Shown here piece after piece: positions 560 to 31,799 of a stretch of DNA of 33,206 bases. Within the stretch, counting starts at the first letter, position 1, and each line of letters starts with the position of its first letter. The notes under the pieces are model-generated. The model did no database searches, was not told where the DNA came from, and saw only the letters and a list, made by a program, of their open reading frames with translations. Made by a program: the position numbers and the translations under genes. Source of the stretch: Phycisphaerae bacterium (lineage in GTDB: Bacteria > Planctomycetota > Phycisphaerae > UBA1845 > PWPN01); assembly GCA_018003015.1 (NCBI GenBank), contig JAGNEZ010000063.1, positions 1 to 33,206 of the forward strand, given 5' to 3'.

Positions 560-584
560 TCGAAATAAACGGGACTGTCCCGTT
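560..584 (-). terminator. Hairpin terminator of the leftward operon
   Basis: Positions 568-584 form a perfect inverted repeat, AACGGGA-CTG-TCCCGTT. Read on the minus strand it overlaps the TAA stop of the symporter gene (583-585) and is followed by a T-rich TATTTCG. A GC-rich 7-bp stem with a 3-nt loop and a T-rich tail fits an intrinsic terminator for the whole leftward operon. The T tract is short, so efficiency is uncertain. Confidence 0.65.
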
Positions 585-3069: not shown

Positions 3070-3120
3070 GCCGAGTTCCCACCGTATGCCGCTCGTCCCG
3101 GATCCGGCTGTGTACAGGGA

Positions 3121-4119
3121 TCACACCGTGACGAGCCGGCCTTCCTTGTTGCTGAGTCGAGCCGCTTCAAGGCACTTGAGTACGTGGATTCCGGCCTCCA
3201 GCGGGTGGTGCCAGGGGGTCCGTTTCTCGATCGCCTGGAGAAAAGCGCCAAACTCGTCCACGTAACATTGCTCGTACTGATAGCCCTTGGGCGGCAGGTA
3301 CACCTCGGACAGGCCGGTTGCGTTCAGGTATCGCTCGGCGCGGCAATCCGGGAACAACCGGATCTCGATCACGCCGTTCTGGCATACGATCCGGTAGACC
3401 GTCTGCTGCAGATCCTGCAGGAGGTCGAACTGAAACGTGACCACGGTGCCCTTGCGTGTCCGCCCGAGGAGTTGGAAGCAGTCGCAGCCGTCGATCTTGA
3501 GATCGCCGAGCTTGTGAGTCCTGCAAGACAGCTCGGCAAGCGAGTCATCAAGCAGCGAGTAGAGCTGTCCGAGGTCCTCCACGAAGACACCCTCAAACTG
3601 GGTGGGGTCGTAGAAGGCGGTATAGTTTTCCCATGGATGCCAGTTGGGCAAGTAGTTGCCCCACTCGAAGTGGTAGATCAGTGGGCGACCCATGGCCGGT
3701 TCGGCGAGCCACCGTTTGGCCCGCTGGACGACCGGGTGATAGGGTGTCTGAATGCCGAGAGCGGCCACCAGCCCGCTTTGCCTGACCAGGGCAGCGAGTT
3801 CTTCGGTACCGTCGAGGCGGTCAGAGAGAGCGATCTCGCAGAAGAAGTCTGTATTGGCCCGTGCCGCCGCCGCGCAGCATTCCACATGAAAGCGGGTTGG
3901 CGTTGAGACGACCAAGGCGTCCGGTTTCCACTTCAGGGCCTGCTCCAGGTCCGGCAGGCTCTCGACGCCATGCCGGGAGAGGCACTCCGCCCGCCGGTCC
4001 TGGCGGACGTCGACGAGGCGGATGGCCGAGGCTGGCACGCCGTGAGCGAGCAGGCAGCGAATCCGACGCCTGCCCATGGAGCCTCCGCCCAGCACGACGA
4101 AACTCTTGTGTGTTCCCAT
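3121..4119 (-). CDS. Gfo/Idh/MocA-family NAD(P)-dependent oxidoreductase, variant EKP motif
   Basis: A 332-residue cytoplasmic protein without a signal peptide. The N-terminus has the Rossmann dinucleotide-binding motif VVLGGGSMG (residues 8-16), followed by the family STPTRFH segment near residue 73. The usual Glu-Lys-Pro motif is replaced by Glu95-Ile96-Ala97, so the conserved lysine is absent. The family oxidises or reduces sugar derivatives. In this operon it may act on the sugar released by the sialidase and cleaved by the aldolase, but that is inference. The ATG at 4119 is chosen over an upstream in-frame one at 4374 because GGGGG (in CTGCAGGGGG) precedes it and the longer form would run into the sialidase gene. 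It follows the sialidase stop by 41 nt and precedes the symporter by 51 nt. Confidence 0.85.
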   Translation of the reverse strand: MGTHKSFVVLGGGSMGRRRIRCLLAHGVPASAIRLVDVRQDRRAECLSRHGVESLPDLEQALKWKPDALVVSTPTRFHVECCAAAARANTDFFCEIALSDRLDGTEELAALVRQSGLVAALGIQTPYHPVVQRAKRWLAEPAMGRPLIYHFEWGNYLPNWHPWENYTAFYDPTQFEGVFVEDLGQLYSLLDDSLAELSCRTHKLGDLKIDGCDCFQLLGRTRKGTVVTFQFDLLQDLQQTVYRIVCQNGVIEIRLFPDCRAERYLNATGLSEVYLPPKGYQYEQCYVDEFGAFLQAIEKRTPWHHPLEAGIHVLKCLEAARLSNKEGRLVTV

Positions 4120-4160
4120 GTTGTCCCCCTGCAGGAGCCTGATCCTCGCACCGGCCAGCC

Positions 4161-5876
4161 TCATCGGCTTGCGGCGGGCACGTCCTTCAGTGTCCAATGG
4201 GTGCCCATCAGGGCCGGCGGCTCGCCCGGCCGTTCTGCCTGGTAATAAACCGTCCAGATCGATCCATCCTTCAACTGCACCGATGCAGGATATCCCATAT
4301 CGCCCTCGAAGGCGGCCGCGAGCTTGATCTCCTTCTTGACGTCCCATGTTCTCCCAAGGTTGCGGCTGATGCACGCATGCTGGCCGAACGGTGGGCGTCG
4401 TCGGGCGTACACCGCCAGCAGCCAGCCGTTCGTCAATCGGATCACGTGCGGTGGATGACCTTGCATCGGTGTCGTGTGTGGCGCCGACCAGGTCGCGCCG
4501 CCGTCGACGCTCTCAGACTGGCGGAGCTGATCCGGTGGATTGCAGTCCCGGAACAAGGCCACGAGCGTACCAGGCGATGCTTCCACCACATGGACTTCGT
4601 CGTAGGAGAGCATGCGGTCCCCCGCAGGTACGGGGAAGTCCGCGATGATCTTCCAGGTCTGACCGTCGTCGCGCGACTCGGAAATCGAGACCTTGTGAGG
4701 CGAGCCATCCGGCGTGCCGTTGTAGTCCTTGGGTGTCGTGTGCGAGGAATGCGGCCGCTGGCCCATGAAGAGGAGTCGGCCGTCGCTCAGTTGGATAGGG
4801 CCGTGCGGCGTCGTGACCGGCGTACGAATCGGCTGTCCCCAGGTCTTGCCGCCGTCAGTGGAACGAACCACGTAGTGGCCCTGCAGGTCCGTCCCATAGG
4901 GAGGCCCGGTGAACCAGCTCACCAGCATCGTCCCCTTGGCGGTGCAGATGACACCGGCATCGCGATCGTCGATGCGGAGGTCCTGGATGGTGATGGCTGG
5001 ACTCCACGTCTTGCCACCGTCAGAGCTCCGGCTGATCTGCGTCTTGCCGTCCTCGGAGATATGCCCCGTGCGGTCACCGGAGAAAGCGGCGATCAGATCA
5101 CCGTTGGGGGCCAGGGCGATCGAGGGCCATCCGATGTAGCGCTGCCTGCACAGGACGCGTTGTGGTTCGAGGATGGTGGCCATTTCCTGGTCGGTGGCGA
5201 CGTCCGTGCCGGTGGACTTGATTTCCCAGCGGCTGGCAATGGCCGCGCGTTTCCCGGTGATCTTCAGGTTTGAGAACTCGACGGCTCCTTGGCTGGTGTA
5301 CACGCCGACAAGTCCCTCGGCATAGGTGCGGTCGTTTGCGCTGAGCACGAGTTTGTCGTCCAAGTAGACCTCGACACGGCCGGTGCGGGTCTGGGCCCGA
5401 GCGGTGTACCAGCGGCCGGGTTCCATGGCGATCTGGTTCTTTCGGGTGATCTCGTTGCCGTCGGCCATGATGTCGCCGCGGAAGAGGATGACCTGGTCGA
5501 AGCGGGTATCGAAGTGGATGAAGTATCCGCGGGCCGAGTCTTGGGCGTTCAGGATCAAGCCTGCCGCCTGCACGCCGTTGCCGCCGGGACTCACCCGGAA
5601 ACGCAGCTGCAGGGTCGGATCGGCGACCGTCGCGCCGCGGTGGACTGCCTGCGGCTGGCCGGAATTGTCGGTCTGCTCGAGGCGCCCATCGCGGATCGTC
5701 CAGGCGCCGCCCACGAACGTCCAGGCGGCGGGGGGGGGAATGAGCGGTGCATCGCTGAGTTCCTCAGCCCGCAGAGCGCGAGGCGGAATCGCAAGGCTTG
5801 CCAGAACCAGCAAAAAGGGACCTAGCCATCTCCTTGATCTGTCCGCGTTCCGATCGTCGCGTCTGAAGCCGGTCAT
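4161..5876 (-). CDS. Secreted Asp-box (BNR) sialidase-like protein with N-terminal LamG-like domain
   Basis: This 571-residue exported protein probably releases terminal sugars from glycans. Residues about 1-38 are a signal peptide ending ALRA. Residues about 45-200 resemble a concanavalin/LamG-like (DUF1080 type) domain. Residues about 215-560 form a beta-propeller with five Asp boxes: SSDGGKTW, STDGGKTW, SRDDGQTW, SVDGGATW and SRNLGRTW. Asp boxes are typical of GH33 sialidases but also occur in other propellers. The classical RIP motif is represented only by RYIGWPS, so sialidase activity is likely rather than certain. The start is ATG 5876, with GGAGG five bases upstream, not ATG 5888. Its propeller is clearly homologous to that of the protein at 14868-17534. 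It lies between aldolase and oxidoreductase genes. Confidence 0.85.
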   Translation of the reverse strand: MTGFRRDDRNADRSRRWLGPFLLVLASLAIPPRALRAEELSDAPLIPPPAAWTFVGGAWTIRDGRLEQTDNSGQPQAVHRGATVADPTLQLRFRVSPGGNGVQAAGLILNAQDSARGYFIHFDTRFDQVILFRGDIMADGNEITRKNQIAMEPGRWYTARAQTRTGRVEVYLDDKLVLSANDRTYAEGLVGVYTSQGAVEFSNLKITGKRAAIASRWEIKSTGTDVATDQEMATILEPQRVLCRQRYIGWPSIALAPNGDLIAAFSGDRTGHISEDGKTQISRSSDGGKTWSPAITIQDLRIDDRDAGVICTAKGTMLVSWFTGPPYGTDLQGHYVVRSTDGGKTWGQPIRTPVTTPHGPIQLSDGRLLFMGQRPHSSHTTPKDYNGTPDGSPHKVSISESRDDGQTWKIIADFPVPAGDRMLSYDEVHVVEASPGTLVALFRDCNPPDQLRQSESVDGGATWSAPHTTPMQGHPPHVIRLTNGWLLAVYARRRPPFGQHACISRNLGRTWDVKKEIKLAAAFEGDMGYPASVQLKDGSIWTVYYQAERPGEPPALMGTHWTLKDVPAASR

Positions 5877-6118
5877 TGAAGCCTCCATCTAACGACCCTC
5901 ATGTTGTCGATGGCAACAAACCTCTCGAGCACCTGTGGTGCCAAATGCTGAGTCTGGGCGACACTCGGCGTGTGAAGAAGCAGTACTACAACCGCGAGGG
6001 CCCGTGCACCCTGCACGGCGAGGGAGCCAAGGCAACAACCGCCCCCGTTGCGGGCGAGCACCGGCTGCGGCGGCTCAGTCCGATTCCGGGACGTATCTGC
6101 CGGTTCAGCCTCCTTCAT
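5873..6118 (-). CDS. Possible small ORF bridging aldolase and sialidase genes
   Basis: An 81-codon frame, not recognised. Support is positional: its ATG at 6118 overlaps the last codons of the aldolase gene, GGAGG lies about 10 nt upstream, and its TGA overlaps the sialidase ATG as ATGA, as in translationally coupled genes. A hydrophobic stretch (ALAVVVLLLHTPSVA) in the middle could be a membrane or export segment. Composition is otherwise unremarkable and it may simply be a chance frame filling a 228-nt gap. Confidence 0.3.
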   Translation of the reverse strand: MKEAEPADTSRNRTEPPQPVLARNGGGCCLGSLAVQGARALAVVVLLLHTPSVAQTQHLAPQVLERFVAIDNMRVVRWRLQ

Positions 6119-7022
6119 CCGTCGAGGTCCTCCAGTTCGCCGGTATTCGTCGCCGAAAGGTCTCCATGCAGGTGTCTCCTGCGAAGGTGTACGGCGGCAG
6201 AAGCCGCAGGGGAAATCGCGGCAGCTGGAGCTTGATCAGCACCTTGTCGAAGGCGCCGTCGATGTGCCCCGCTCCCCCGACCGCCTGCTCGAGGGCCTTG
6301 CCCAGGATAGCCAGTTCTTCGCCCATTCTTCTCAACTCACCGCCGCGGGCGTCGAAGAATTGCCTGGCCTTTGCGAAATGGCAGAGTGCCAGTGAGATCA
6401 AGAGGCCGCACTCGGCCTCATCCCGGCATTCGGCGTAACCCGGCTCGGTGAAGAAGAACTGCAGGTCGGGGGCTTTGCGAAGCATGTCCACGCGGCCGGT
6501 GCGGTCCGGACCTCCGCCATATTTGACTGCCACGAGATTGGGGTGATCCGCCGACAGCCTGGCGTAGTCACCACCGGTTAAGACTCGTCCGCTTCTCGAC
6601 AGGTTGTAGTGCATAAAACGGCAGGTGGGAAAACGGTCACAGACCTCGTGGAATGAAACAGCGACCTCGCGGTCGGTCAGTCGCCCCCAACTCGGCAGGG
6701 AGATCTGAAACGTTGCGATGCCCAGGTCGCGGCATCGCTCGATGCGCTCGATCACGGTGGACAGCGAGAGGCTGATGATTCCGACCATGGGGTGGTTTTC
6801 GGGCTTGGGCATCTCCTGCCGGAACAACTCCACGATCGCGTCGAATTGCCGGTCGCTGACCGCGTACCCTTCGCCGGCGGTGCCGAACACGTACAGGTGG
6901 CGGGTCAGATTGTCGCGCAGGAGCCTGATTTCCTGGCGGAAAAGCACTTCGTCCGGTGTCCAGTCCGGTTTCCAGGGCACCACGCAGGTGGCGAGGATGG
7001 CGGGCGGATAGCGCTTGGCCAC
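6105..7022 (-). CDS. DapA/NanA-superfamily class I aldolase (N-acetylneuraminate lyase-like)
   Basis: A 305-residue cytoplasmic TIM-barrel enzyme of the dihydrodipicolinate synthase / N-acetylneuraminate lyase superfamily. Visible family landmarks are GTAGE at residues 47-51 (substrate carboxylate loop), Tyr139 in MHYNLS (proton relay) and Lys167 in LVAVKYGG (Schiff-base lysine). Length matches the family. Enzymes of this group cleave or form pyruvate-containing compounds. Neighbouring sialidase and symporter genes favour sialic acid or keto-acid sugar cleavage over lysine synthesis, but specificity cannot be read from sequence by eye. The start is GTG 7022, because AGAGAAAGG lies 8 nt upstream; a longer ATG frame from 7064 overlaps the lipoprotein gene. 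Start and lipoprotein stop are only 4 nt apart, suggesting translational coupling. Confidence 0.85.
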   Translation of the reverse strand: MAKRYPPAILATCVVPWKPDWTPDEVLFRQEIRLLRDNLTRHLYVFGTAGEGYAVSDRQFDAIVELFRQEMPKPENHPMVGIISLSLSTVIERIERCRDLGIATFQISLPSWGRLTDREVAVSFHEVCDRFPTCRFMHYNLSRSGRVLTGGDYARLSADHPNLVAVKYGGGPDRTGRVDMLRKAPDLQFFFTEPGYAECRDEAECGLLISLALCHFAKARQFFDARGGELRRMGEELAILGKALEQAVGGAGHIDGAFDKVLIKLQLPRFPLRLLPPYTFAGDTCMETFRRRIPANWRTSTDEGG

Positions 7023-7026
7023 AGAA

Positions 7027-7425
7027 TCAGCCTTTCTCTCTCCCGGGCGGGTTGGGGGAAGCACGCTTGCGGGTCAAATGCGTGGGAACCTCGTCATTTC
7101 CGAAGGAAAACTCCTCCTCGCTCAATTTGCGAATGCTCAGCGGCGGATTCTTACCGAGGATGATCTTTCCCCCTTCAATACGCCACTTGCCTGTCTGGGT
7201 TTTGTCGCCCACTCGGGAGGCACACGTTCCGTTGGCTTTGAACTCGATCACTTCCTCGCGGCCCTCGCCGGCACCCAGAGGCAGCGGTCTTGACCATGTT
7301 CCGACGACTTGGGCAGTGATCTTGCGGTCATTCGGGTCTGTCTTCCTGCAGCCCGCGAGGGGCGCGAGCCATGAGAGGCACAGCAGCCAGACGAGACAGG
7401 ACATCGCTGTTGGGAATGACCTCAT
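7027..7425 (-). CDS. Small lipoprotein, lipocalin-like beta-rich domain
   Basis: A 132-residue predicted lipoprotein. The N-terminus is a short positively charged start, a hydrophobic stretch and a lipobox LAGC with the lipidated cysteine at residue 26. The mature part has alternating beta-type segments (VVGTWSRPLPLG, EVIEFKANGTC, GKWRIEGGKIILG), reminiscent of the lipocalin-like copper-resistance/DUF families that describe a W-x-x-x-G-G-K-I motif. No function is assigned. It lies 9 nt after the pseudopilin stop and 4 nt before the aldolase start, so it is in the operon. It may be a surface or periplasmic accessory to glycan capture. Confidence 0.75.
   Translation of the reverse strand: MRSFPTAMSCLVWLLCLSWLAPLAGCRKTDPNDRKITAQVVGTWSRPLPLGAGEGREEVIEFKANGTCASRVGDKTQTGKWRIEGGKIILGKNPPLSIRKLSEEEFSFGNDEVPTHLTRKRASPNPPGREKG
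7031..7039 (-). promoter_or_regulatory. Ribosome binding site deciding the GTG start of the aldolase
   Basis: AGAGAAAGG on the minus strand sits inside the last codons of the lipoprotein gene and 8 nt before GTG 7022. It supports the GTG over the upstream in-frame ATG at 7064 and implies coupled translation of lipoprotein and aldolase. Confidence 0.6.
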
Positions 7426-7434
7426 GCTCGATCT

Positions 7435-8307
7435 CTAGTAACTGTAAGCTCCGGTGGCTTGACTACCGTATCCGCCGCGGCCCACGTAGTTCTTGATCTT
7501 CCGGCGCGTTTCGACATGGCCGTCACCGAAGCCTGCATTGCTATCCATGAATCGGGTTGCGGGGACGTCGAGCAACTGGTAAGGGGTCGGTTCGGGGTTC
7601 TCGGAATGGAAGCTGCGGTAGGGCTTCAGCGGTGTGGACCAACCCTCCGCGGGCCAGGACTCGTTGACGTCGGCCACAATGACGTCCTGGGAATAACCAG
7701 CGTCCTGGGGTTCGTGATCCCTGCTGCGATTGCCCGACTCGGCCCAGAAGTAGGGGCCGGAGTAATCGCCCGCCCGCATCCCTGCGAAGAGGTTGTAGCC
7801 CATCATGTAGCTGGGGTTGCCGCCGTAGCCTCGGGACACATCCGCGACGAAGAAGACCCTGGACCACAGGCTGCGATCCTCCTCATCCGGGAGATTTTCC
7901 GTGCTATTAGCCGGCTGGAAGTAGTATGTTGACTTGATGAGCGGACACCAGAGGATCGCTGCGTGCTTGTTGGCGGCCTTGACGTACAGGAACCTGCGTA
8001 TGTCCGGTTGAGCGGTGCGGTTGTACTGGACCTGGTTGGGGTAGTTCGCGCCGCGCGTAGGGTACTTGCCTTTGCTCTCTGCAGCGTAGACCATCAGGCC
8101 CTTGACGATCTGAGAGATGCCGCTGCTGCAGGTGACCACCCGTGCCTGGCGGCGCGCCCGGCTGAGAGAGGGGAGCAGGACGGTGATCAGGAGGGCGATA
8201 ATGGCGACCACCACCAAGACCTCAATCAGCGTGAAGCCCGTCCGGGCAGTGAAGCCGAAGTGCCGGGCAGCATAGCTCACGGTTGTTCTAGGGATGGATG
8301 GGTTCAT
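7435..8307 (-). CDS. Prepilin-type (pseudopilin-like) protein, first gene of the leftward operon
   Basis: A 290-residue protein with a type IV/type II secretion prepilin N-terminus: cleavage motif TG-FTLIEV followed by the hydrophobic helix LVVVAIIALLITVLLPSLSRAR. The C-terminal region ends with the FGDGHVE signature seen in the large planctomycete prepilin families (H-X9-DG/DUF1559-like). The protein probably needs prepilin peptidase processing and assembles at or spans the cell envelope. The start is ATG 8307 with GGGAGG seven bases upstream; an upstream in-frame ATG at 8406 would place the start too near the promoter. It is followed at 9 nt by the lipoprotein. A role as a substrate-specific surface capture or secretion component of the catabolic operon is inference. 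Confidence 0.88.
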   Translation of the reverse strand: MNPSIPRTTVSYAARHFGFTARTGFTLIEVLVVVAIIALLITVLLPSLSRARRQARVVTCSSGISQIVKGLMVYAAESKGKYPTRGANYPNQVQYNRTAQPDIRRFLYVKAANKHAAILWCPLIKSTYYFQPANSTENLPDEEDRSLWSRVFFVADVSRGYGGNPSYMMGYNLFAGMRAGDYSGPYFWAESGNRSRDHEPQDAGYSQDVIVADVNESWPAEGWSTPLKPYRSFHSENPEPTPYQLLDVPATRFMDSNAGFGDGHVETRRKIKNYVGRGGYGSQATGAYSY

Positions 8308-8431
8308 CGCAAGACCTCCCGCGGAAGCCCTCATTTGTCGACTGACGACATGTGCATGCCCGATCCCGCCTCGGTCGGAGACACCGGCCTGAGTGCGGGG
8401 GGGCACGTTGCTCCCACAAGCCTAGGCTCGT

Positions 8432-8740: not shown

Positions 8741-9880
8741 ATGATCGACATTCCCAGACGAGAAGGTGCTGCGGCCTCGATGCGGCTGGTTCGGGAGCTT
8801 CGCCGACTGGTGGTTGTTGGCCATCTTGGGGTGGGTGATCCGCTTCCGTCGATTCGCGAGCTGATTGAAGAGAAAGGTGTTGGCCAGTTCGCCGTTCGCC
8901 AGGCTCTGAAGCAGATTGAGCGTGAGGGCTGGGCCGCTCGTCGGGCCAATGGAGGCAAGCTATGGATTGCCTCGGGTGCGGCCGAGTGTGCCCGGGCGCG
9001 GATGGCCGTCGAACCTCCGCCGATCATCTTCATGCTCACCTCGCTGGACCGCCGGTTTGGTGGCGAGGACCAAGTCCGCGAGTTGGAGCGAGGTTTCGCG
9101 GGTGCGTTCGGCGCGTGCGAGGTTCGGCAGGTGGCCATTGACGTGGATGCTGGCGTGCAGCGGGTGGAGCGTCTGCTTGAGGAACACGAGCAGTTGTCGT
9201 GCGAAACGGGCTATCTGTTAGCCGGCCTGCCTTCGCAATCCAAGCTTGTCTTTTACCAGAGACAAGTGGCGAGCGTGGTGCTTGGTCACGTCGACCCGGA
9301 GCTGAATCTGCCATCTGTCGACGAGGACATCAGGCATGTTGGCTACACGGCGGGTCGGCTGCTGTGTCACCGGAAGCGGGCCGTAGTGCTCTTTTCGCGC
9401 GGGCTGGTGGGCGGCGAAGCGGAGCTGATCAACGGTGTGCGCCAGGCAGCTCGCGAGCTCTGCGGGCGCTATCCTTCCTGGGACGAATGCACCTGCTCGG
9501 TCCCCAATGATCCGCGGGCCTACGAGACGGCGATCGACCAGCTGCTGCAGAACGCTTCTGGGCCAATCGGTATTCTGGCAGTGCGTCCGCCGCTGGCGAT
9601 GGCGGTAGTCAAGGTTGCTGCCCGACGTGAGATTCCCATTCCGGAGCAGGTCGAACTCATCGGGTACCACCATTCCTCAGCGTACACCCATGTTCACCCG
9701 GAGATCACCTCGGTTGGCGTGAAGTCCATCGAGGAGCTGGGTCGTCAGGCGGCCCAGTTGCTGGCCGAATCGATGATTCGGCCCAGGGTGGTCGCTCGCA
9801 GGGAGTTAGTCGAATCCAATCTGATCGAGAGAGAATCAACTCTGCCCTCCGATGAGGGTAGGGTCCGCGGCGGTTCATGA
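8741..9880 (+). CDS. GntR-type transcription regulator with LacI-like sensor domain
   Basis: A 379-residue DNA-binding regulator. Residues about 14-80 form a GntR winged helix (LPSIRELIEEKGVGQFAVRQ, then ALKQIEREGW). Residues about 95-360 resemble a LacI/periplasmic-binding-protein sugar sensor, as in AraR-like regulators, with segments such as VVLGHVDPELNLPSVDEDIR and EQVELIGYHHSS. Such proteins usually repress sugar-use genes until a sugar ligand binds. It is divergent from the pseudopilin-sialidase-symporter operon and is followed at 39 nt by the 1329-residue secreted protein, so it may control both directions. An in-frame stop at 8735-8737 fixes the ATG at 8741 as the earliest start; no strong ribosome site is visible. 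Confidence 0.88.
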   Translation: MIDIPRREGAAASMRLVRELRRLVVVGHLGVGDPLPSIRELIEEKGVGQFAVRQALKQIEREGWAARRANGGKLWIASGAAECARARMAVEPPPIIFMLTSLDRRFGGEDQVRELERGFAGAFGACEVRQVAIDVDAGVQRVERLLEEHEQLSCETGYLLAGLPSQSKLVFYQRQVASVVLGHVDPELNLPSVDEDIRHVGYTAGRLLCHRKRAVVLFSRGLVGGEAELINGVRQAARELCGRYPSWDECTCSVPNDPRAYETAIDQLLQNASGPIGILAVRPPLAMAVVKVAARREIPIPEQVELIGYHHSSAYTHVHPEITSVGVKSIEELGRQAAQLLAESMIRPRVVARRELVESNLIERESTLPSDEGRVRGGS

Positions 9881-9919: not shown

Positions 9920-12900
9920 ATGAATCCGCACCTGTTCTCGTGGAGGCGCGTCGTGCTGTGGGCCTGCCTGGGGGCCAGCACGATTTGCCCTGCGGCCGTC
10001 GTGATGTCACACGTGGGCTCGAGTGATCCGGCCGCCGAGGGCTGGACGTTCAACGATTACACTTTCATCGGTGGCACCGTCTCTCCTGGAAACGACTCCG
10101 AGCCTTTCTGGCATATCCAGGCCAACGCCGGGGCGGCGCAGCGCTATCTCTACGACCTTGCCTCGGCGGACGTCGCCGACCCGGACGGCTGGACTTACAC
10201 TGTGCGGGTGAAGGTCAACGCCGCCAACATGGTGTTTGAAGCGTCGTTTGGGGTCATTGAAGGTGGCGACTGGTGGAACCTGCATCTGGTAGTTGGCGCG
10301 CCCGAGCAGACCGGCGTTTGGGTGGTCGACACCAACGCCAACCCGGTCGAGCGGCTCAGCTCCGTTGATCCCAGTGCAGCCTACCACACCTACCAGACCG
10401 TCTATGATCCCTCTGCCAATGGTGGGCTGGGTGGGGTCACCTTCTATCTGAATGGCATCCCCATCGGGGCGCGGTCCCGCGGGCAGGGGTACCCGGTGCC
10501 CGGCATGCTGAGGTTGGACTTCGGCGACAACGACCGGGGCAACGCCCCATCCGATTCCCAATGGTCGCTGGTTCGTTTTGAAACCGGCCAGCACCCGTTG
10601 ACGAACGACGCGTGCAGCGGTGCAGACATGATCACGGACGGCCTTATGGCTTCCTCGACGTTGGGCGCCTCGCCCGACGGCAGTGCTTCCTGTGGCAACT
10701 CTGACGGTTCACCTGATTTATGGTACAGCTACGCGGCCACATGTACCGGGATTGCGACGATCAGCACATGCGGTTCTGGCTTTGACACAGTGCTGGCCGT
10801 CTATTCGGGAACCTGTGAAGGGCTTACTGAAGTGGCCTGCAACAACGACTGCGATGGTGTTCCGTGTGGCGGTTGGTCTTCATGCGTCAGCTTCGCCGCT
10901 ACAGAGGGGCAGACCTACCTGGTTCGCGTGGCGGGGGCCGATGGTCAGGGTGGCGACTTCAACCTGAAGGTGCAATGCGGCGTGCCGGACAACGACACGT
11001 GTGCCCTAGCCACGGCCGTCGGACTTGGCAGCGTCGTCGGGACCACTTTGGGGGCCTCTGCTGACGGCTCGGGCAGCTGTGGCGGCTCGAACGGAAGCCC
11101 TGATGTCTGGTACGCATACACCTCGCCGGTGAACGGCACGCTCAAGATCGACACCTGCGGTGCGACATTCGATACGGTGGTATCAGTGCTCGACGGGTGC
11201 GGCGGGGCCGAACTGGCCTGCAACAATGACTGCGAGGGGGCCCCGTGCTCCGGTCCTGGTTCCTGTCTGAGCGTGGCCGTCGCGAAGGACCGCACCTATC
11301 TGATTCGTGTTGCCGGCGCCGCGGGGGCGAAGGGGGACTTCACCCTTTCGCTCGAGGACGACTCCGCCCAACAGTGGGCAGTACTCTATCAGGAGGTTTT
11401 TGCCACTGCCGGCATCAAGCGCCCCCTGGACTTCGCGGGTTGGAGTTGGATCAATGAGTCCGGCGTCGAGTACATTCCGACACTCGACAGCAATCCTGGC
11501 ATATCGTACGTTGGCGGTGCCGCCTTGCCTCCGGAGGGCTCAGTGAACTCCGATCCCGCCCTGCCCGACGGGTTGAGCGGTTACATCTATGTCGGTGATC
11601 CGTATCCGGACACCTATGGCTTGCTGTATACCCAGGAGTATCTGGTTCGTCGTGGAGGCGAGGCCAGACTGCGGTTCAGCTGGGCCGGATTGTCGAGCCC
11701 GATCACCTCAGCCCGTCTTGCCCTGCGCGTCGGTTCCACATGGCACGCGTCCGATCCGGCCATTCCCGGCGAACTCGGCAACTGGTCGAAGATCGGGCCG
11801 CTGGACCCCGATGCTCTCCAGTGGCGCGCCCTGGACTACACGCCGGGTACCCGCATGGCGCTTGGGGCGGCAGTCATGCTGCCGGCCGGAGACATTACCG
11901 CGTTCGGACTGTTGATTGAAGGTGTTGACGCTACCACCCGTGGCGATTATCGCTTCGACAACTTCCGCGTCGAGGGCGTTCAGTATGCGGACGCGTGTGC
12001 GAGCGCCCTGCCGATCACTGACGGCACGACCTACGGCTCTACGGCGTTTGCCACTCCGGGCGGGACCGCCTCGTGCGGCAGTTCCGACGGCAGCGCGGAT
12101 GTGTGGTATGCCTATACCGCGGCTTCGACCGGCCCACTCACGGTCGACAGCTGTGGCTCGTCCTTTGACACCGTGCTTTCGGTCCGGACCTCATGCGACG
12201 GGGCGGAACTGGGCTGCAGCGACAATGCCTGCGGGAACGGCTCGCGGCTGACGCTACCTGTCCATAAGGACGCCACCTACTACATCCGGGTCTCTGGAGC
12301 GAGTGGTACGGGCGGAGCCTTCGTGCTCCACGTAGGCTCGGGTACGGTGCCCAACGATGAGTGTGGCCATGCCCAGGTGGTCGTCGATGGCTTGACGACG
12401 GGCACCACGCTCGCCGCCTCCAATGACGGCACCGCTTCCTGCGGCGACTCGAACACGTCTCCGGACGTGTGGTACTCCTACACGGCCATCTGTAACGCGC
12501 CGCTCGAGATCAACACCTGCGGATCCGACTTCGACACGGTGCTGTCGGTGCTGGACGGTTGCGGGGGGGCCGAGCTCGCCTGCGATGATGACGCCTGCGG
12601 CCGACAATCGCGTGTAGAGATCTCTGCCGCGACCGTGGGTACGCACTACCTGATCCGGGTCTCGGGCAATGGTTACAGTCAAGGCAACGTCAAGCTGAAC
12701 GTGATCTGCAAGACGCCACCTCCGAACGACAACTGCGTGGATGCCGTGGTTTTGACCGCCGTGGGCGTGACTCACGGCACCACGACGTATGCCACGTCCG
12801 ACGGCGACGCGAGCTGCGGCGACTCCTACGGCAGTCCGGATGTCTGGTACGGTCTGACCGTGCCCAAGTCTGGGCAGCTCAAGGTCAAGGTTACCAGTGC

Positions 12901-13909
12901 CGAGTTCAGTCCGGTCGTGTCGATCCACCAGCCGGCGACATGCCCCGGCGATCTGGAGAACGAGGTTGGCTGTGGGACGCCCGCTCTGTCTCTGCGGGTG
13001 ATCGAGGGCGCGTCCTATCTGATCCGCGTGGCCGGTGTGGGAGCAGGCCGCGGGGCATTCGAGCTGGATATCTCGTATGGCACGGTGATCATCGAGCACA
13101 TCGGGCTGTTCGATCCGGCCACCGAGGGCTGGACACTGAACGATTACACTGGCGTCGGCGGCATCACTGGGCCGAGCAGTGATGGCGAGGACAGCTGGCG
13201 TATCCGGGCGAATGCCGGGGCTGCTCATCGTTATCTATATGCGCTGGGTACCTCCGACGTGTCGGATCCTCGTGGCTGGACGTATACCGCCAGGGTGAAG
13301 GTGAACGCGGCCTCCCAGGTATGGGAGTCGGCGTTTGGCGTCATCGAGGGTGGCGACTGGTGGAGTCTGAGCCTGGTGCCGGGCAGCCCGGAAACCCGAG
13401 GCGTGTTCCTGGTCAACCCCAGCTACGGTGCCGGGCCGCGGGTGAGCGAGATCGATCCGAGTGCAGCCTTTCACACCTATCAGATCATCTCTGATGCGGC
13501 GGTGAACGGAGGTGCTGGAGGAGTCACTTACTACCTTGACGGGGTGCCCCTGGCCACGCAGGCTCGCGGAGACGTACCCCAGGTGGGAGGGATGACGCGC
13601 CTGGACTTCGGTGATAACGACAGCACCAGTGCGGCGTCGGATTCGCAGTGGTCGCTGGTGCGGTTCGAGATCGGCAACTCCGCGCTCTGCCCGCGGCCGT
13701 TCGCCGACACAGACGCGGATGGTGATGTGGACCAGCGGGACTTCGGCGTCTATCAAGTGTGCTATGCGGGTAGCGGCGGTGGGGTCCTCGAGGGTTGCCG
13801 GTGCCTTGACGCCGACGGCGATGGCGACGTCGATACCACCGACTTCGAGAAGTTCCAGGCTTGCTTCAGCGGCCCGGCGGTGCCGGCCGATCCCGCATGC
13901 AATGACTGA
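9920..13909 (+). CDS. Large modular secreted protein: module D, PPC-like repeats, module D, dockerin
   Basis: A 1329-residue secreted protein with a signal peptide ending about residue 26. Modules in order are: D1, LamG-like (28-224); PPC-like repeats 1-2 (226-478); a distinct beta-rich segment (480-690); PPC-like repeats 3-5 (691-1053); D2 (1056-1254); and a dockerin-like pair of calcium loops, DTDADGDVDQRDF and DADGDGDVDTTDF (1263-1315), with a Cys-rich tail. Each PPC-like repeat carries D-x-W-Y-x-Y, S/T-C-G-x-x-F-D-T-V and Y-L/I-R-V-x-G landmarks, many with paired cysteines. No catalytic domain is recognised, so a binding or scaffold role on the surface is likely. AAGGAGG at 9904-9910 fixes the ATG. 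It lies 39 nt after the regulator. Confidence 0.85.
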   Translation: MNPHLFSWRRVVLWACLGASTICPAAVVMSHVGSSDPAAEGWTFNDYTFIGGTVSPGNDSEPFWHIQANAGAAQRYLYDLASADVADPDGWTYTVRVKVNAANMVFEASFGVIEGGDWWNLHLVVGAPEQTGVWVVDTNANPVERLSSVDPSAAYHTYQTVYDPSANGGLGGVTFYLNGIPIGARSRGQGYPVPGMLRLDFGDNDRGNAPSDSQWSLVRFETGQHPLTNDACSGADMITDGLMASSTLGASPDGSASCGNSDGSPDLWYSYAATCTGIATISTCGSGFDTVLAVYSGTCEGLTEVACNNDCDGVPCGGWSSCVSFAATEGQTYLVRVAGADGQGGDFNLKVQCGVPDNDTCALATAVGLGSVVGTTLGASADGSGSCGGSNGSPDVWYAYTSPVNGTLKIDTCGATFDTVVSVLDGCGGAELACNNDCEGAPCSGPGSCLSVAVAKDRTYLIRVAGAAGAKGDFTLSLEDDSAQQWAVLYQEVFATAGIKRPLDFAGWSWINESGVEYIPTLDSNPGISYVGGAALPPEGSVNSDPALPDGLSGYIYVGDPYPDTYGLLYTQEYLVRRGGEARLRFSWAGLSSPITSARLALRVGSTWHASDPAIPGELGNWSKIGPLDPDALQWRALDYTPGTRMALGAAVMLPAGDITAFGLLIEGVDATTRGDYRFDNFRVEGVQYADACASALPITDGTTYGSTAFATPGGTASCGSSDGSADVWYAYTAASTGPLTVDSCGSSFDTVLSVRTSCDGAELGCSDNACGNGSRLTLPVHKDATYYIRVSGASGTGGAFVLHVGSGTVPNDECGHAQVVVDGLTTGTTLAASNDGTASCGDSNTSPDVWYSYTAICNAPLEINTCGSDFDTVLSVLDGCGGAELACDDDACGRQSRVEISAATVGTHYLIRVSGNGYSQGNVKLNVICKTPPPNDNCVDAVVLTAVGVTHGTTTYATSDGDASCGDSYGSPDVWYGLTVPKSGQLKVKVTSAEFSPVVSIHQPATCPGDLENEVGCGTPALSLRVIEGASYLIRVAGVGAGRGAFELDISYGTVIIEHIGLFDPATEGWTLNDYTGVGGITGPSSDGEDSWRIRANAGAAHRYLYALGTSDVSDPRGWTYTARVKVNAASQVWESAFGVIEGGDWWSLSLVPGSPETRGVFLVNPSYGAGPRVSEIDPSAAFHTYQIISDAAVNGGAGGVTYYLDGVPLATQARGDVPQVGGMTRLDFGDNDSTSAASDSQWSLVRFEIGNSALCPRPFADTDADGDVDQRDFGVYQVCYAGSGGGVLEGCRCLDADGDGDVDTTDFEKFQACFSGPAVPADPACND
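10001..10591 (+). repeat. Module D, copy 1
   Basis: First of four copies of an about 200-residue LamG-like module. Landmarks are SSDPAAEGWTFNDYT, GWTYTVRVKVN, SFGVIEGGDWWNLHLV, YHTYQ and DSQWSLVRFE. Confidence 0.75.
10595..11353 (+). repeat. PPC-like repeats 1 and 2
   Basis: Two about 125-residue beta modules in tandem, each with SPDLWYSY or SPDVWYAY, STCGSGFDTV or DTCGATFDTV, CNNDC and a YLVRVAG or YLIRVAG strand. They resemble bacterial pre-peptidase C-terminal domains. Confidence 0.7.
11990..13078 (+). repeat. PPC-like repeats 3 to 5
   Basis: Three further tandem copies of the same beta module. The third is the most diverged (it lacks the S/T-C-G-x-x-F-D-T signature) and joins directly to module D copy 2. 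Confidence 0.7.
13085..13681 (+). repeat. Module D, copy 2
   Basis: C-terminal copy in the 1329-residue protein, with DPATEGWTLNDYTGVGG, GWTYTARVKVN, AFGVIEGGDWWSL and SDSQWSLVRFEIG. The bases encoding its last 15 residues are nearly the same as in copy 4. Confidence 0.75.
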
Positions 13910-13968
13910 GCGTTTGTTTCAGTTGTGTTGGTTGCTGTGACTGTTGGCGGTGCGAAAGGAGAAAAGGA

Positions 13969-14715
13969 ATGCGCGCGCGGAACCTGATTCGAGGTGTTGA
14001 GGTTGTACTGGGCCTCTTGACAGTTGCCGCAGTCGCCGGTGCGGCTCCGTACCAGCATGCAGGATCGACCGACCCTGCGTCTGAAGGCTGGGTGCTCAAC
14101 GACTACACCGGTCTGGGGGGTGCGGTGGCTCCGGGCTGGGACAGCGAGGCGTTCTGGCAGACGCATGGCAATGCCGGGAGCGTTCAACGCTACCTTCAGG
14201 ACATCACCCCGGCAGACGTGAACGACCCGACCGGCTGGACGTACACCGCGAGGGTGAAGGCCAACCTGGCCACGGACATTCTCGAAGCCTCTTTTGGCGT
14301 CATCGACGGTCAGGAATGGTGGCAGGTTCACCTGCTGACCAGCGCCGCGGCGGGGGTTTATCTCATGAACCCCGACGCGTCCACGGGGCCGCAGCTCAGC
14401 GGAGTTGATCCCAGTCTCGAGTACCACACGTATCAGATTGTCTTCAACCCGACTGGCGCGGGCGGAGGAGGGGAGGCCACTTACTACGTAGATGGTATGG
14501 CGACTGGTTCGCGGATGCGTGGCCAGAACTTCAATGCCGGCGTTGCAGGGCTCTATCGGCTCGACTTTGGCGACAATGATCGGGGGGCGACAGAATCCGA
14601 CTCGCAATGGGCGCTGGTACGTTTTGAACTTGGGCAGCATCCTGTACCGGAGCCGGCCTCGATTCTGATGGTTGGTCTGAGTGGTTGGCTCCTGGTGAAA
14701 CGCCGCTCGAGATGA
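13969..14715 (+). CDS. Single-module D protein with PEP-CTERM anchor
   Basis: A 248-residue exported protein: signal peptide (about 1-25), one complete module D (26-223) and a PEP-CTERM sorting tail at 226-248 consisting of VPEPAS, a hydrophobic helix ILMVGLSGWLLV and a basic end KRRSR. PEP-CTERM proteins are processed by exosortases and routed to the envelope or outside. The protein is thus module D on an anchoring tail, while its neighbours carry the same module on dockerins. AAAGGAG precedes the ATG. It begins 59 nt after the 1329-residue protein. Function is unknown; binding of a glycan or cell-surface ligand is a reasonable guess for a LamG-like fold. Confidence 0.83.
   Translation: MRARNLIRGVEVVLGLLTVAAVAGAAPYQHAGSTDPASEGWVLNDYTGLGGAVAPGWDSEAFWQTHGNAGSVQRYLQDITPADVNDPTGWTYTARVKANLATDILEASFGVIDGQEWWQVHLLTSAAAGVYLMNPDASTGPQLSGVDPSLEYHTYQIVFNPTGAGGGGEATYYVDGMATGSRMRGQNFNAGVAGLYRLDFGDNDRGATESDSQWALVRFELGQHPVPEPASILMVGLSGWLLVKRRSR
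14044..14637 (+). repeat. Module D, copy 3
   Basis: The only copy that forms a protein by itself, with STDPASEGWVLNDYTGLGG, SFGVIDGQEWWQVHLL and SDSQWALVRFELG. Confidence 0.75.
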
Positions 14716-14867
14716 AAGGCAGACCCGTGCCCTGGATGACGTCGGGCGCGGGCCGCGCCGCCGTTCAGGCGTGCCTCGTTTTCCTCTGGCGGTTCATTGA
14801 TCCGACCGGAGTAGTTGTGCCATTGAAGCAGCGTAGTTCTGCACCGGTGGGAACAGAGGTGAAGGAT

Positions 14868-17534
14868 ATGCGCCCAAAGCACAGGCTTGTTGGATTTGTG
14901 GTCCTGGTTGCTGCCCTGGTTCCGAGTACGGCGGCAAGTGGCCAGGGTTCCGCCACGATCCTCTCCCGCAGAGTCCTGTGCAAGCAACCGGGCCGCTATA
15001 TTGGCTGGCCGAGTATTGCCGAGGCGCCCAACGGCGACCTGATCGTCGTGTTTTCGGGCGATCGCAGCGCACACGTCTCGCCAGACGGCAAGGTTCAGAT
15101 GGTGCGTAGCAGTGACCGCGGGGAGACATGGAGCGATCCGACCACCATCTACGACCTTCCGATCGACGATCGCGACTCGGGGATTCTCCGCACCGTGCGG
15201 GGTACCATGCTGGCCAGCTGGTTCACCGGTCCGCCCTACGGGACATCGCTTCAAGGTCATTACGTGGTTCGCTCCAGCGACAACGGGTACACCTGGGGTG
15301 TTCCTGTCCGTACGCCGGTGACAACGCCGCACGGGCCCATTCAGCTGCGCGATGGCCGACTGCTTTATCTCGGACTTGAGCCGCACTCCTCGCACACCGT
15401 TCCCATGGACTACAACGGTCCGCCCGCCGGTTCGCCCCACGCAGTCTCGATCGCTGAGTCGAATGACGACGGGCTTACCTGGCGGGTGATCGCGCATTTT
15501 CCTGTTCCTGCGGAGGCGCTCATGCTCTCGTATGATGAGCCTCAGGTGGTTGAGCTGCAGGGCGGACGACTCCTGGCCATGTTTCGGGACAACAACGCGC
15601 CGCAGCTGCTCATCCAATCGGAAAGCGATGACGGTGGTTGCACGTGGTCGACACCCCGCAGGACGGCGGTCCACGGTTATCCGCCGCATCTCCTTGAGCT
15701 CACGAACGGCTGGCTGCTCGTTTCCTATGCCAAGCGATGGGATCCGCTGGGAGAGTATGCCTGCCTCAGCCGGGATGGCGGACGGACTTGGGACGTTCAG
15801 CAGGAGATCCGGTTGTCCGGCGCCCTCAACGGCGATCTCGGCTATCCCGCATCGCTGCAGCTCGCGGATGGCTCGATCTGGACGGTCTATTATCAGGTGG
15901 ACCAGCCGGGCGAGAATCCCTGTCTGATGGGTACCCATTGGCGGATTGTTGCGGACGAATGCGTGCAGGCGGCAGAGGTGACCGATGGTTCGCTCGCGAG
16001 CACGACCGGGCTCGCGACCGCCGGTGGACCCGCGCTGTGCGGGTTGCCCAGCACGCTGGCCGACACCTGGTATGCTTACACCGCGACCTGTACTGGTACC
16101 GCCATCGTCGCGGCCTGTGGTGTCTCCGAGGGTGCCAGGATTGCGGTGTATGCCGGCACCTGTGACGCTGCCAGTGAGATAGTGTGCAGTGGGGGTTGTC
16201 CTGAGCGGGTCTGTGGGACCGGTCCGTGCGTGACCTTTCAGGCTACTGAGGGGCAGGTTTACCTCCTTCGTGTAGCAGCGGATGCTTTGCATGGCGCCAA
16301 CTTCAACCTGGAAATCGCCTGCGGGCCCCCGGTCAACGACACTTGCGCGAGGGCGATCCCCGTTCGTCGCGGGACCATCCGCGGAACAACGCTCGCCGCC
16401 TCCATCGACGACCCTAGTGGGGGATGTTCCGGTGCGGATGCGACTGGCGGAGTCTGGTATTCCTACACCGCGCTGCAGGATGGCCTCCTCCAACTGAGCA
16501 CCTGCGGTTCCGCGTTGGACACGGTCGTTTCCATCTACGATGGATGCCTCGGGACACGGCTGGCCTGCAACGATGACTGTGGCGGTGACCCGTGTGGCGG
16601 GTCGGCCTCGTGTCTTACCCTGAACGTACACAAGGGGCGAAGTTACCCGATCTGCCTCGCCGGCTCCCGGGGAGAGCGAGGCGGCTTCCAGTTGTCCTTG
16701 CGCGACGCGGTCATCGCGTTGCACGAGGGTTCGAACGATCCCTCCACGGAGGGCTGGCAACGAGACGATTTTACCGGCATCGGTGGGACCGTAGGCCCCG
16801 GGTTCGACCTTGAGGCCTACTGGCGGACCCAAGGCAATGCGGGCGGTGCTCAGCGCTACCTTTACAGCCTTGATCCGGCCGATGCCTCCGACCCCAGGGG
16901 CTGGACGTGCACCGCCCGCGTCAAGGTGAACACTGCCACCCAGGTATTCGATGCATCTTTTGGCGTGATCGATCGCAATGACTGGTGGAACCTGCATCTG
17001 GTGGCCGGAGGAACGTCGGGCGCCACCGGTGTATGGGTGGTGGACGGCAACGCGCATCCGAGCGAGAGGCTGAGCACCATCAACCCAAGCGCGGGTTACC
17101 ACACCTACCAAATCGTCTTCGACCCGCTAGCTCAGGGTGGCGCCGGCGGAGTCACGTACTACGCGGACGGCCGGATCATCGGGGTGCGATTCCGTGGCCA
17201 GCAGTATCAGGTGGGAGGAATGACTCGCCTGGATTTCGGCGACATCGATCGGGGCGACACCGCGTCGGATTCGCAGTGGTCGTTGGTACGGTTCGAAATC
17301 GGCAACGCGGCCCTGTGCCGGCGGCTGTTTGCGGACATGGATTCGGATGACGATGTGGATCTAGACGATTTCGGCGCGTTCCAGCGGTGTTACTCGGGTG
17401 CTGAAGCAGGCGTCCGGGAGAATTGCGTCTGTTTCGACCGAGATGGCAACGGGAGCATCGATGCTCAGGACTTCGCAGCCTTTGCGTCCTGTTTCAGTGG
17501 TCCGATGATCTCGTTCAAGCCGACATGTGATTGA
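14868..17534 (+). CDS. Secreted sialidase-like protein fused to PPC-like repeats, module D and dockerin
   Basis: An 888-residue secreted protein. Modules are: signal peptide (1-25), Asp-box propeller (30-360), two PPC-like repeats (363-486, 487-612), module D (616-814) and a dockerin-like pair of calcium loops (about 820-885). The propeller has five Asp boxes (SSDRGETW, SSDNGYTW, SNDDGLTW, SDDGGCTW, SRDGGRTW) and shares long identical stretches with the propeller at 4161-5876, such as SWFTGPPYGT and TPVTTPHGPIQL. It probably cleaves terminal sugars, possibly sialic acid, from glycans. The ATG at 14868 is chosen over in-frame ATG 14685 because GAGGTGAAGG precedes it and a signal peptide begins there. 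Reuse of module D and dockerin with its two upstream neighbours argues for a common assembly. Confidence 0.85.
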   Translation: MRPKHRLVGFVVLVAALVPSTAASGQGSATILSRRVLCKQPGRYIGWPSIAEAPNGDLIVVFSGDRSAHVSPDGKVQMVRSSDRGETWSDPTTIYDLPIDDRDSGILRTVRGTMLASWFTGPPYGTSLQGHYVVRSSDNGYTWGVPVRTPVTTPHGPIQLRDGRLLYLGLEPHSSHTVPMDYNGPPAGSPHAVSIAESNDDGLTWRVIAHFPVPAEALMLSYDEPQVVELQGGRLLAMFRDNNAPQLLIQSESDDGGCTWSTPRRTAVHGYPPHLLELTNGWLLVSYAKRWDPLGEYACLSRDGGRTWDVQQEIRLSGALNGDLGYPASLQLADGSIWTVYYQVDQPGENPCLMGTHWRIVADECVQAAEVTDGSLASTTGLATAGGPALCGLPSTLADTWYAYTATCTGTAIVAACGVSEGARIAVYAGTCDAASEIVCSGGCPERVCGTGPCVTFQATEGQVYLLRVAADALHGANFNLEIACGPPVNDTCARAIPVRRGTIRGTTLAASIDDPSGGCSGADATGGVWYSYTALQDGLLQLSTCGSALDTVVSIYDGCLGTRLACNDDCGGDPCGGSASCLTLNVHKGRSYPICLAGSRGERGGFQLSLRDAVIALHEGSNDPSTEGWQRDDFTGIGGTVGPGFDLEAYWRTQGNAGGAQRYLYSLDPADASDPRGWTCTARVKVNTATQVFDASFGVIDRNDWWNLHLVAGGTSGATGVWVVDGNAHPSERLSTINPSAGYHTYQIVFDPLAQGGAGGVTYYADGRIIGVRFRGQQYQVGGMTRLDFGDIDRGDTASDSQWSLVRFEIGNAALCRRLFADMDSDDDVDLDDFGAFQRCYSGAEAGVRENCVCFDRDGNGSIDAQDFAAFASCFSGPMISFKPTCD
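15954..16703 (+). repeat. PPC-like repeats 6 and 7
   Basis: Two beta modules between the propeller and module D, with DTWYAYTA and GVWYSYTA and the CNDDC signature in the second. Confidence 0.7.
16713..17309 (+). repeat. Module D, copy 4
   Basis: C-terminal copy in the sialidase-like protein, with NDPSTEGWQRDDFTGIGG, SFGVIDRNDWWNLHLV and SDSQWSLVRFEIG. It is followed directly by the dockerin. Confidence 0.75.
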
Positions 17535-31259: not shown

Positions 31260-31799
31260 GGTCCACCTCCAAGGCAGGGTGTGAAGGGACAAATGTGACC
31301 GAGACCCCGGCCCCTGGCACGGATACGCGGGAGACGGACTAGCAGACGGCGATGAGGTGAATGGCCGACATGCCGAGGCCGCCGTCAGGCAAGCATCCGA
31401 TGCCGGAGACGTACAGTCAGCAGTATAGCCGTGAGACGGTGGTCAATTCAAGGCCCAGAGGCAAGATAGACGCAACCGGAGGGCGCTGTACAATGGGCTG
31501 ACGTGGTCCGGCGGCGTAGCCGGGCAGGGGCATACGGGAGCCCGGGATGGTGAAACGCACGGCGTTCGGCTGACTCCAGTTGGTTTGTGTTCTTCGTGGT
31601 CAGGCCGTCGTGGCCCAGGTGCCGTGGTTGTTGATCGCCTTCACAAGCCGGGCTAGACGAGTTGTGTCGCGGGAGGTGCGTTGCGAAGGCCGGCCTTTCA
31701 GGTCCCGTTGGGTATGCGGGCAGCAGGGATAGTGTTTCGCCGGGCACGGCGGGTCCGCATTCTGACCGATGGTTCGGCGAACATGACCTGCACCGTACT
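31260..31799. other. Divergent gap between protease and ABC transporter genes
   Basis: 540 bases without a recognised gene. The leftward promoter is at 31422-31451. Rightward, no clear ribosome site or promoter precedes the ABC gene; the frame that extends its N-terminus back to 31662 is judged noncoding. Confidence 0.5.
31422..31451 (-). promoter_or_regulatory. Sigma-70-like promoter of the protease gene
   Basis: On the minus strand TTGAAT (31451-31446), an 18-nt spacer and TATACT (31427-31422); the -35 matches 4 of 6 and the -10 matches 5 of 6. The spacer contains the dyad CCGT-CTC-ACGG. Transcription would start near 31415, about 155 nt before the ATG. Confidence 0.5.

What the first reader, a model, noticed from the sequence alone, without database searches (positions are those of the whole stretch)
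10001..17309. Module D: a recurring LamG-like domain shared by three consecutive secreted proteins
An about 200-residue module occurs four times (10001-10591, 13085-13681, 14044-14637, 16713-17309), with landmarks EGW..(N/D)D(Y/F)T, SFGVI(E/D), DWW, YHTYQ and SDSQW(S/A)LVRFE. It is fused to dockerins in two proteins and to a PEP-CTERM anchor in a third, in one transcription unit beside a sialidase-like enzyme. I do not recognise it as a named family. Same module on different anchoring systems suggests one ligand displayed or captured at the surface.
Basis: partly seen in the sequence, partly recalled or inferred. Interest (0 to 1): 0.7.

Follow-up and report, generated by a model that had tools for sequence, protein, structure and literature searches.

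The report
Planctomycete lectins related to cholera-sialidase domain
[quoted passage not shown] this planctomycete carries 13 copies in three similar gene clusters, and the four copies in this window have lost the two arginines that grip sialic acid in Vibrio, so they probably bind a different sugar.

Summary
Four copies of a ~198-residue module (56-64% identical to the first) lie at the stated places in three consecutive secreted proteins. It is not an unknown family. A profile of 26 copies matches, in the whole PDB, only Vibrio cholerae sialidase NanH (2w68 E 2.5e-10). An AlphaFold model (pLDDT 94) matches its N-terminal lectin domain at Z 22.2, 2.3 A over 179 residues; the next entry is at Z 17.2. 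The module is a divergent Vibrio-type CBM40-like lectin.

The genome holds 13 copies in three paralogous clusters, which a genus-mate shares. Each has module + galactose-binding-like repeats + dockerin-like tail, module + PEP-CTERM, and propeller enzyme + module + tail, beside a prepilin found full-length nowhere else in 13 family genomes. Modules group mostly by cluster, not by host protein, and are under purifying selection.

In the window copies both arginines that hold the sialic acid carboxylate in Vibrio are replaced, and the fused enzyme lacks the RIP arginine of GH33 sialidases. I infer a glycan-binding module with a changed, probably non-sialic ligand. The ligand is not shown. New variant of a known kind.

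The parts
9998..10591 (+). Module copy 1, first domain of the mature protein 9920-13909; the copy folded by AlphaFold2
13085..13678 (+). Module copy 2, near the C-terminus of protein 9920-13909
14044..14637 (+). Module copy 3, in the PEP-CTERM protein 13969-14715
16710..17306 (+). Module copy 4, in the propeller enzyme
9920..13909 (+). Protein 1: signal peptide, module, GBD_T9SS_assoc (PF23759) and PPC-like repeats, module, dockerin-like tail
10991..13036 (+). GBD_T9SS_assoc repeats between modules 1 and 2
13688..13906 (+). Dockerin/EF-hand-like tail, below the Pfam cut-off; genome-wide tag
13969..14715 (+). Protein 2: signal peptide, module, PEP-CTERM sorting signal
   Evidence: TIGR02595 20.9 bits, cut-off 16; two exosortases in the genome
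14868..17534 (+). Protein 3 from its probable ATG start (ORF listed from TTG 14685): sialidase-fold propeller, GBD repeats, module, dockerin-like tail
   Evidence: start codon inferred from the signal peptide
14952..15947 (+). Six-bladed Asp-box propeller without the RIP arginine
17316..17531 (+). Dockerin-like tail of protein 3
8741..9880 (+). GntR/LacI-type regulator next to the module genes; 40% identical relative at the C57 cluster
7435..8406 (-). Prepilin-type protein; full-length homologues only at the three module clusters of the genus
4161..5888 (-). Second propeller enzyme of the same subfamily (66-68% identical propeller) with an N-terminal CBM66-like domain and no module

Best explanation
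[quoted passage not shown] It most likely serves as the shared glycan-capture domain of a sugar-harvesting cassette: one copy holds a secreted sialidase-fold exo-enzyme near its substrate, two frame a multidomain secreted protein, and one is on a PEP-CTERM protein sorted to the cell surface (inferred). In the window's cassette the ligand has probably changed from sialic acid to another glycan, because both carboxylate-binding arginines of the Vibrio site are replaced in all four copies and the fused enzyme lacks the first arginine of the sialidase triad (inferred from alignments). Copies within a cassette are each other's relatives, so each cassette probably recognises one ligand (inferred).
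For: Profile of 26 copies hits only V. cholerae sialidase in the PDB, E 2.5e-10 over positions 10-195 of 198; a single sister copy E 3.4e-9, window copy 1 E 3.2e-4, hhalign E 8.9e-11. AF2 model pLDDT 93.9; Foldseek best hit 2w68 E 3.7e-10; VIA Z 22.2, 2.3 A, 179 aligned, next entry Z 17.2. PF09264 passed by a sister protein. Fused propeller has the sialidase fold, Z about 34 to GH33 and 38.4 to 5hx0. The same pairing of module and Asp-box propeller occurs in a Kiritimatiellales contig. Within-locus clades; dN/dS 0.04-0.32. Arg74 and Arg118 equivalents replaced in the window copies; RIP arginine missing in the enzyme.
Against: No ligand evidence of any kind. The contact residues come from a review, not from coordinates, and the Arg118 register is uncertain by one column. 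At C57 the module seems to keep the arginines while its enzyme also lacks a RIP motif by direct reading, so module and enzyme do not change strictly together. Surface location and co-expression are not shown.
Confidence: 0.62

Rival explanations
1. The window modules still bind sialic acid or another nonulosonic acid (for example Kdn, pseudaminic or legionaminic acid) through a rearranged site that uses other conserved arginines, and the locus harvests nonulosonates.
For: Window copies have an invariant Arg at residue 49, two residues along the same strand from the lost Arg74 position, and an Arg at the Ser198 position in three of four; residue 161 is Arg in nearly all copies. Neighbouring genes include a sodium:solute symporter, a DHDPS-superfamily protein and a Gfo/Idh oxidoreductase, a gene mix that would fit nonulosonate catabolism. 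The enzyme keeps the sialidase fold, Tyr and Glu.
Against: Both Vibrio arginines and the enzyme's RIP arginine are missing. The DHDPS-like protein is not a recognisable NanA (12.5 bits; best PDB match a dihydrodipicolinate synthase), and no NanA over cut-off was found in the genome.
Confidence: 0.22
2. The modules do not bind glycans; like the second, inserted lectin-like domain of VcNanH they act as structural or protein-contact domains (spacers) in large secreted proteins.
For: The profile also weakly matches the inserted lectin domain of NanH, and the Pfam family that a sister copy passes is named after it. Known contact residues are lost in the window copies.
Against: The full-length match is to the N-terminal, sialic-acid-binding domain. 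The module stands alone on PEP-CTERM proteins, where a spacer role makes little sense, and on different enzymes, under purifying selection.
Confidence: 0.13
3. The module is just another generic LamG/GH16-type jelly roll, and the match to NanH only reflects a common fold.
For: Nine of 26 copies weakly match Laminin_G_3 and five match Glyco_hydro_16.
Against: Sequence-only searches find NanH and nothing else convincing in the PDB, and the structural Z stands 5 to 8 units above generic jelly rolls.
Confidence: 0.03

Closest known systems
Vibrio cholerae NanH N-terminal lectin domain (Vibrio-type CBM40; PDB 2w68, 1w0o/1w0p)
   Same: Homologous over almost the whole module, same fold (Z 22.2, 2.3 A), shared core W, GW, H, DG, WG positions, fused to a sialidase-fold enzyme.
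   Different: About 18% identity; Arg74 and Arg118 replaced in the window copies; here also on non-catalytic and PEP-CTERM proteins; 13 copies per genome; Planctomycetota instead of Gammaproteobacteria (PMC5736709).
Pfam PF09264 Sial-lect-inser
   Same: A sister-cluster module protein passes its cut-off (37.9 against 25.8 bits); 6 of 26 copies match weakly.
   Different: The four window copies have no hit at all.
Canonical CBM40 (C. perfringens NanJ, R. gnavus NanH, S. pneumoniae NanA)
   Same: Beta-sandwich lectin on sialidases (PMC5736709, PMC4546082).
   Different: The binding site of the canonical type differs from the Vibrio type (PMC5736709); no canonical member appeared in the profile search.
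GH33 sialidases (for the fused propeller)
   Same: Six-bladed Asp-box propeller, Z about 34; Tyr of GYPAS, Glu of DEPQVVE and one Arg align with GH33-like genes of the same genome.
   Different: RIP arginine absent; nearest structure is 5hx0 (Z 38.4), of unknown function.

Membership tests
Vibrio-type CBM40 (VcNanH N-terminal lectin) | Significant full-length sequence homology to VcNanH lectin | tested here: met
Vibrio-type CBM40 (VcNanH N-terminal lectin) | Same beta-sandwich fold, clearly closer than to other jelly rolls | tested here: met
   Z 22.2 against 17.2 for the next entry
Vibrio-type CBM40 (VcNanH N-terminal lectin) | Sialic-acid contacts Arg74, Arg118, Gln188, Gly196, Ser197, Ser198 | tested here: not met
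   In the four window copies neither arginine is kept; in two C57 modules and one genus-mate ortholog both are, in the MAFFT register
Vibrio-type CBM40 (VcNanH N-terminal lectin) | Carried by a GH33 sialidase | tested here: not met
   Partner propeller lacks the RIP arginine, and most copies are on non-catalytic proteins
Vibrio-type CBM40 (VcNanH N-terminal lectin) | Measured binding of sialosides | not testable with these tools
   needs purified protein
GH33 sialidase (fused propeller) | Six-bladed Asp-box propeller | tested here: met
GH33 sialidase (fused propeller) | RIP motif arginine of the carboxylate triad | tested here: not met
   IGWP in place of FRIP/YRIP
Dockerin type I tails | Score above the Pfam Dockerin_1 cut-off | tested here: not met
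   15.4 and 12.6 bits against 22.9
PEP-CTERM / exosortase substrate | C-terminal sorting signal plus an exosortase in the genome | tested here: met
   TIGR02595 above cut-off; two Exosortase_EpsH genes

The most novel reading that the evidence does not exclude
A recurring planctomycete cassette pairs a dedicated pseudopilin, and in two of three clusters a GntR/LacI-type regulator, with a lectin derived from the Vibrio CBM40 lineage. The lectin is displayed in parallel on a sorted surface protein, on a multidomain secreted protein and on a sialidase-fold exo-enzyme. Lectin and enzyme have been retuned cassette by cassette to different glycans, so that one cell carries three matched capture-and-cut systems.
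Probability: 0.3. Interest if true: 0.62.

Novelty: new variant of a known kind. Interest (0 to 1): 0.42.

Why it matters
A 2017 survey found Vibrio-type CBM40 only in Gammaproteobacteria, in eight non-redundant sequences, all with a sialidase domain (PMC5736709). Here a related lineage has expanded to 13 copies in a planctomycete genome, sits on anchored and non-catalytic proteins, and in one locus has lost the sialic-acid arginines while a sister locus appears to keep them. That is a natural series for testing how a sialic-acid lectin changes its ligand, and it gives an annotation lead for planctomycete surface proteins that current libraries leave unnamed.

Tried and rejected
Pfam and NCBIfam gave no family for the window modules themselves. 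Generic LamG/GH16 assignment rejected on sequence and Z. Relaxed constraint rejected: dN/dS 0.04-0.32 against the genus-mate. 'Sialidase' as a name for the fused enzyme rejected for want of the RIP arginine. NanA-type identity of 6105-7064 not supported (best PDB match a dihydrodipicolinate synthase at E 1.1e-4; no NanA over cut-off in the genome). Dockerin-specific anchoring of this module rejected: similar tails occur at about 150 or more places. The viral structure library gave only generic phage jelly rolls. No relevant papers on CBM40 in Planctomycetes, on dockerin plus PEP-CTERM there, or on PF09264 in that phylum by title. Canonical CBM40 did not appear among the profile hits or in the rows shown by VIA, which does not exclude it.

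Full report
Observation. HMM boundaries are 9998-10591, 13085-13678, 14044-14637 and 16710-17306. They lie in three consecutive proteins on the + strand: 9920-13909 (module, repeated GBD_T9SS_assoc domains, module, dockerin-like tail), 13969-14715 (module, PEP-CTERM) and 14685-17534 (sialidase-fold propeller, GBD repeats, module, dockerin-like tail). In proteins 1 and 2 the module begins right after the signal peptide (direct reading).

How many and where. The genome (6.86 Mb, 144 contigs; the window is contig C63) has 13 clear copies: four here, four on C57 and five on C4. One other member of the family (G003) has a single copy, on an enzyme. Only 9 of 298 genomes sampled from the class and 6 of 392 from the phylum, the own genome included, have a match at the thresholds used, mostly remote; three of the remote proteins are a single module with a PEP-CTERM signal.

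The clusters. All three share a module-GBD-module protein with a dockerin-like tail, a module-PEP-CTERM protein and an enzyme-module protein with a tail. The PEP-CTERM assignment at C4 rests on reading the C-terminus (PEPVSIVTLLAGLAATTLRPRRR); the library score there is below cut-off. Next to them is a prepilin-type protein, 44-56% identical between clusters; a GntR/LacI-type regulator (40% identical) is present at C63 and C57 and was not found at C4. In G001 no module-PEP-CTERM gene was found in the C57-type cluster. Full-length homologues of the prepilin occur only at these clusters in both genomes; the other hits in 13 family genomes cover only the N-terminal part.

What the module is. A profile of 26 copies searched against all PDB sequences returns only V. 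cholerae sialidase: 2w68 E 2.5e-10, 1kit 7e-10, 1w0o 7.8e-10, over almost the whole module. A single sister copy finds 2w68 at 3.4e-9, window copy 1 at 3.2e-4, and hhalign gives 8.9e-11. The AF2 model of copy 1 (pLDDT 93.9, pTM 0.91) has 2w68 as best Foldseek hit (E 3.7e-10) and VIA Z 22.2, 2.3 A over 179 residues; the next entry, 6yp6, a phage carbohydrate esterase domain, has Z 17.2, and generic jelly rolls are at about 15 or below. The sister protein L016:11767-17223 passes Pfam PF09264. The module is therefore a divergent Vibrio-type CBM40-like lectin.

Is the sialic acid site kept? A review of the VcNanH complex lists Arg74 and Arg118 (carboxylate), Gln188, Gly196, Ser197 and Ser198 (PMC12355970). 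Three MAFFT modes agree. Arg74 corresponds to column 47: Arg in 14 of 26 copies, but Ala in three window copies and Val in the PEP-CTERM copy. Arg118 corresponds to column 92: Arg in three copies of the C57-type cluster, Trp in all window copies. hhalign shifts Arg118 by one, to an acidic residue in the window copies; no window copy has Arg in either register. At the Ser198 position three window copies have Arg. The Vibrio site is thus lost or rebuilt in the window copies and may be kept in three C57-type modules. This is an alignment result without coordinates.

The partner enzyme. The propeller 14952-15947 folds as a sialidase (pLDDT 83.8): Z 38.4 to 5hx0, a protein of unknown function, and about 34 to GH33 sialidases. 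It has five Asp boxes, but where GH33 enzymes have the RIP arginine it reads IGWP; two other genes of the genome (L071, L073) do have RIP. A second enzyme of the same subfamily without the module lies at 4161-5888 (-), with an N-terminal match to levanase CBM66. The C57 and C4 enzymes are 51% identical to each other and give no BLAST hit to the window enzyme. An independent pairing of the module with an Asp-box propeller occurs in a Kiritimatiellales contig (L066).

How it probably works (inference). The eight C63/C11 copies form one clade (97/100) and the seven C57/C56 copies another (91/97), across different host proteins; the C4 copies are more scattered, and the C4 enzyme copy groups with the G003 enzyme copy. 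dN/dS against the genus-mate is 0.04-0.32. This fits one ligand per cassette, with the same capture domain on the secreted enzyme, on a multidomain secreted protein and on a surface-sorted protein. Two exosortases are present. Shown: homology, fold, distribution, constraint, residue changes. Inferred: glycan binding, changed ligand, surface location, coordinated expression. The dockerin-like tails are a genome-wide tag below the Pfam cut-off, so I do not read them as cellulosome-type dockerins, although the only two cohesins found in the genome lie in this window.

Membership and novelty. Homology and fold of Vibrio-type CBM40 are met; contact residues and the tie to a GH33 sialidase are not met in the window. 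I place it as a related lectin family that probably works like a CBM40 but is not a proven member. The 2017 survey found Vibrio-type CBM40 only in Gammaproteobacteria, eight sequences in five genera, all with a sialidase (PMC5736709). The present family is a new variant of a known kind.

Noticed in passing
window 25143-31292 (-): 2049-aa subtilisin-like protein with a TIG domain, a C-type lectin match, two cohesin domains and above-cut-off dockerin domains; these are the only two cohesins found in the 6.86-Mb genome, which has about 150 or more dockerin-like tails.
   Followed up: partly
window 7435-8406 (-); L015:4915-5895 (-); L016:18360-19271 (+): A prepilin-type protein whose full length occurs only at the three module clusters of this genus; it could be a dedicated pseudopilin for export or assembly of these proteins.
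   Followed up: partly
L015:10065-10856 and L041: The module-PEP-CTERM gene at the C57 cluster has no counterpart found in the genus-mate; its module groups with the neighbouring D1, so it may be a recent tandem copy or a loss in G001.
   Followed up: no
window 583-7064 (-): Sodium:solute symporter with N-terminal HEAT repeats, Gfo/Idh oxidoreductase, propeller enzyme with CBM66-like domain and a divergent DHDPS-superfamily protein on one strand: looks like a sugar-acid uptake and breakdown cluster.
   Followed up: partly
L049:1426-2160 (-), L051:1342-2127 (+), L055:1360-2172 (+): Remote planctomycete proteins made of a single module plus PEP-CTERM, with the same 'GA(N/T)DP(T/V)TEG' start: an unnamed family of surface proteins.
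   Followed up: partly
L071 and L073 (contigs C5 and C2 of the own genome): Two Asp-box propeller genes with intact FRIP/YRIP motifs, candidate true sialidases, away from the module clusters.
   Followed up: no
L016:3221-4834 (-): Repetitive secreted protein beside the C4 cluster with a run of N between near-identical repeats; the assembly may be collapsed there.
   Followed up: no
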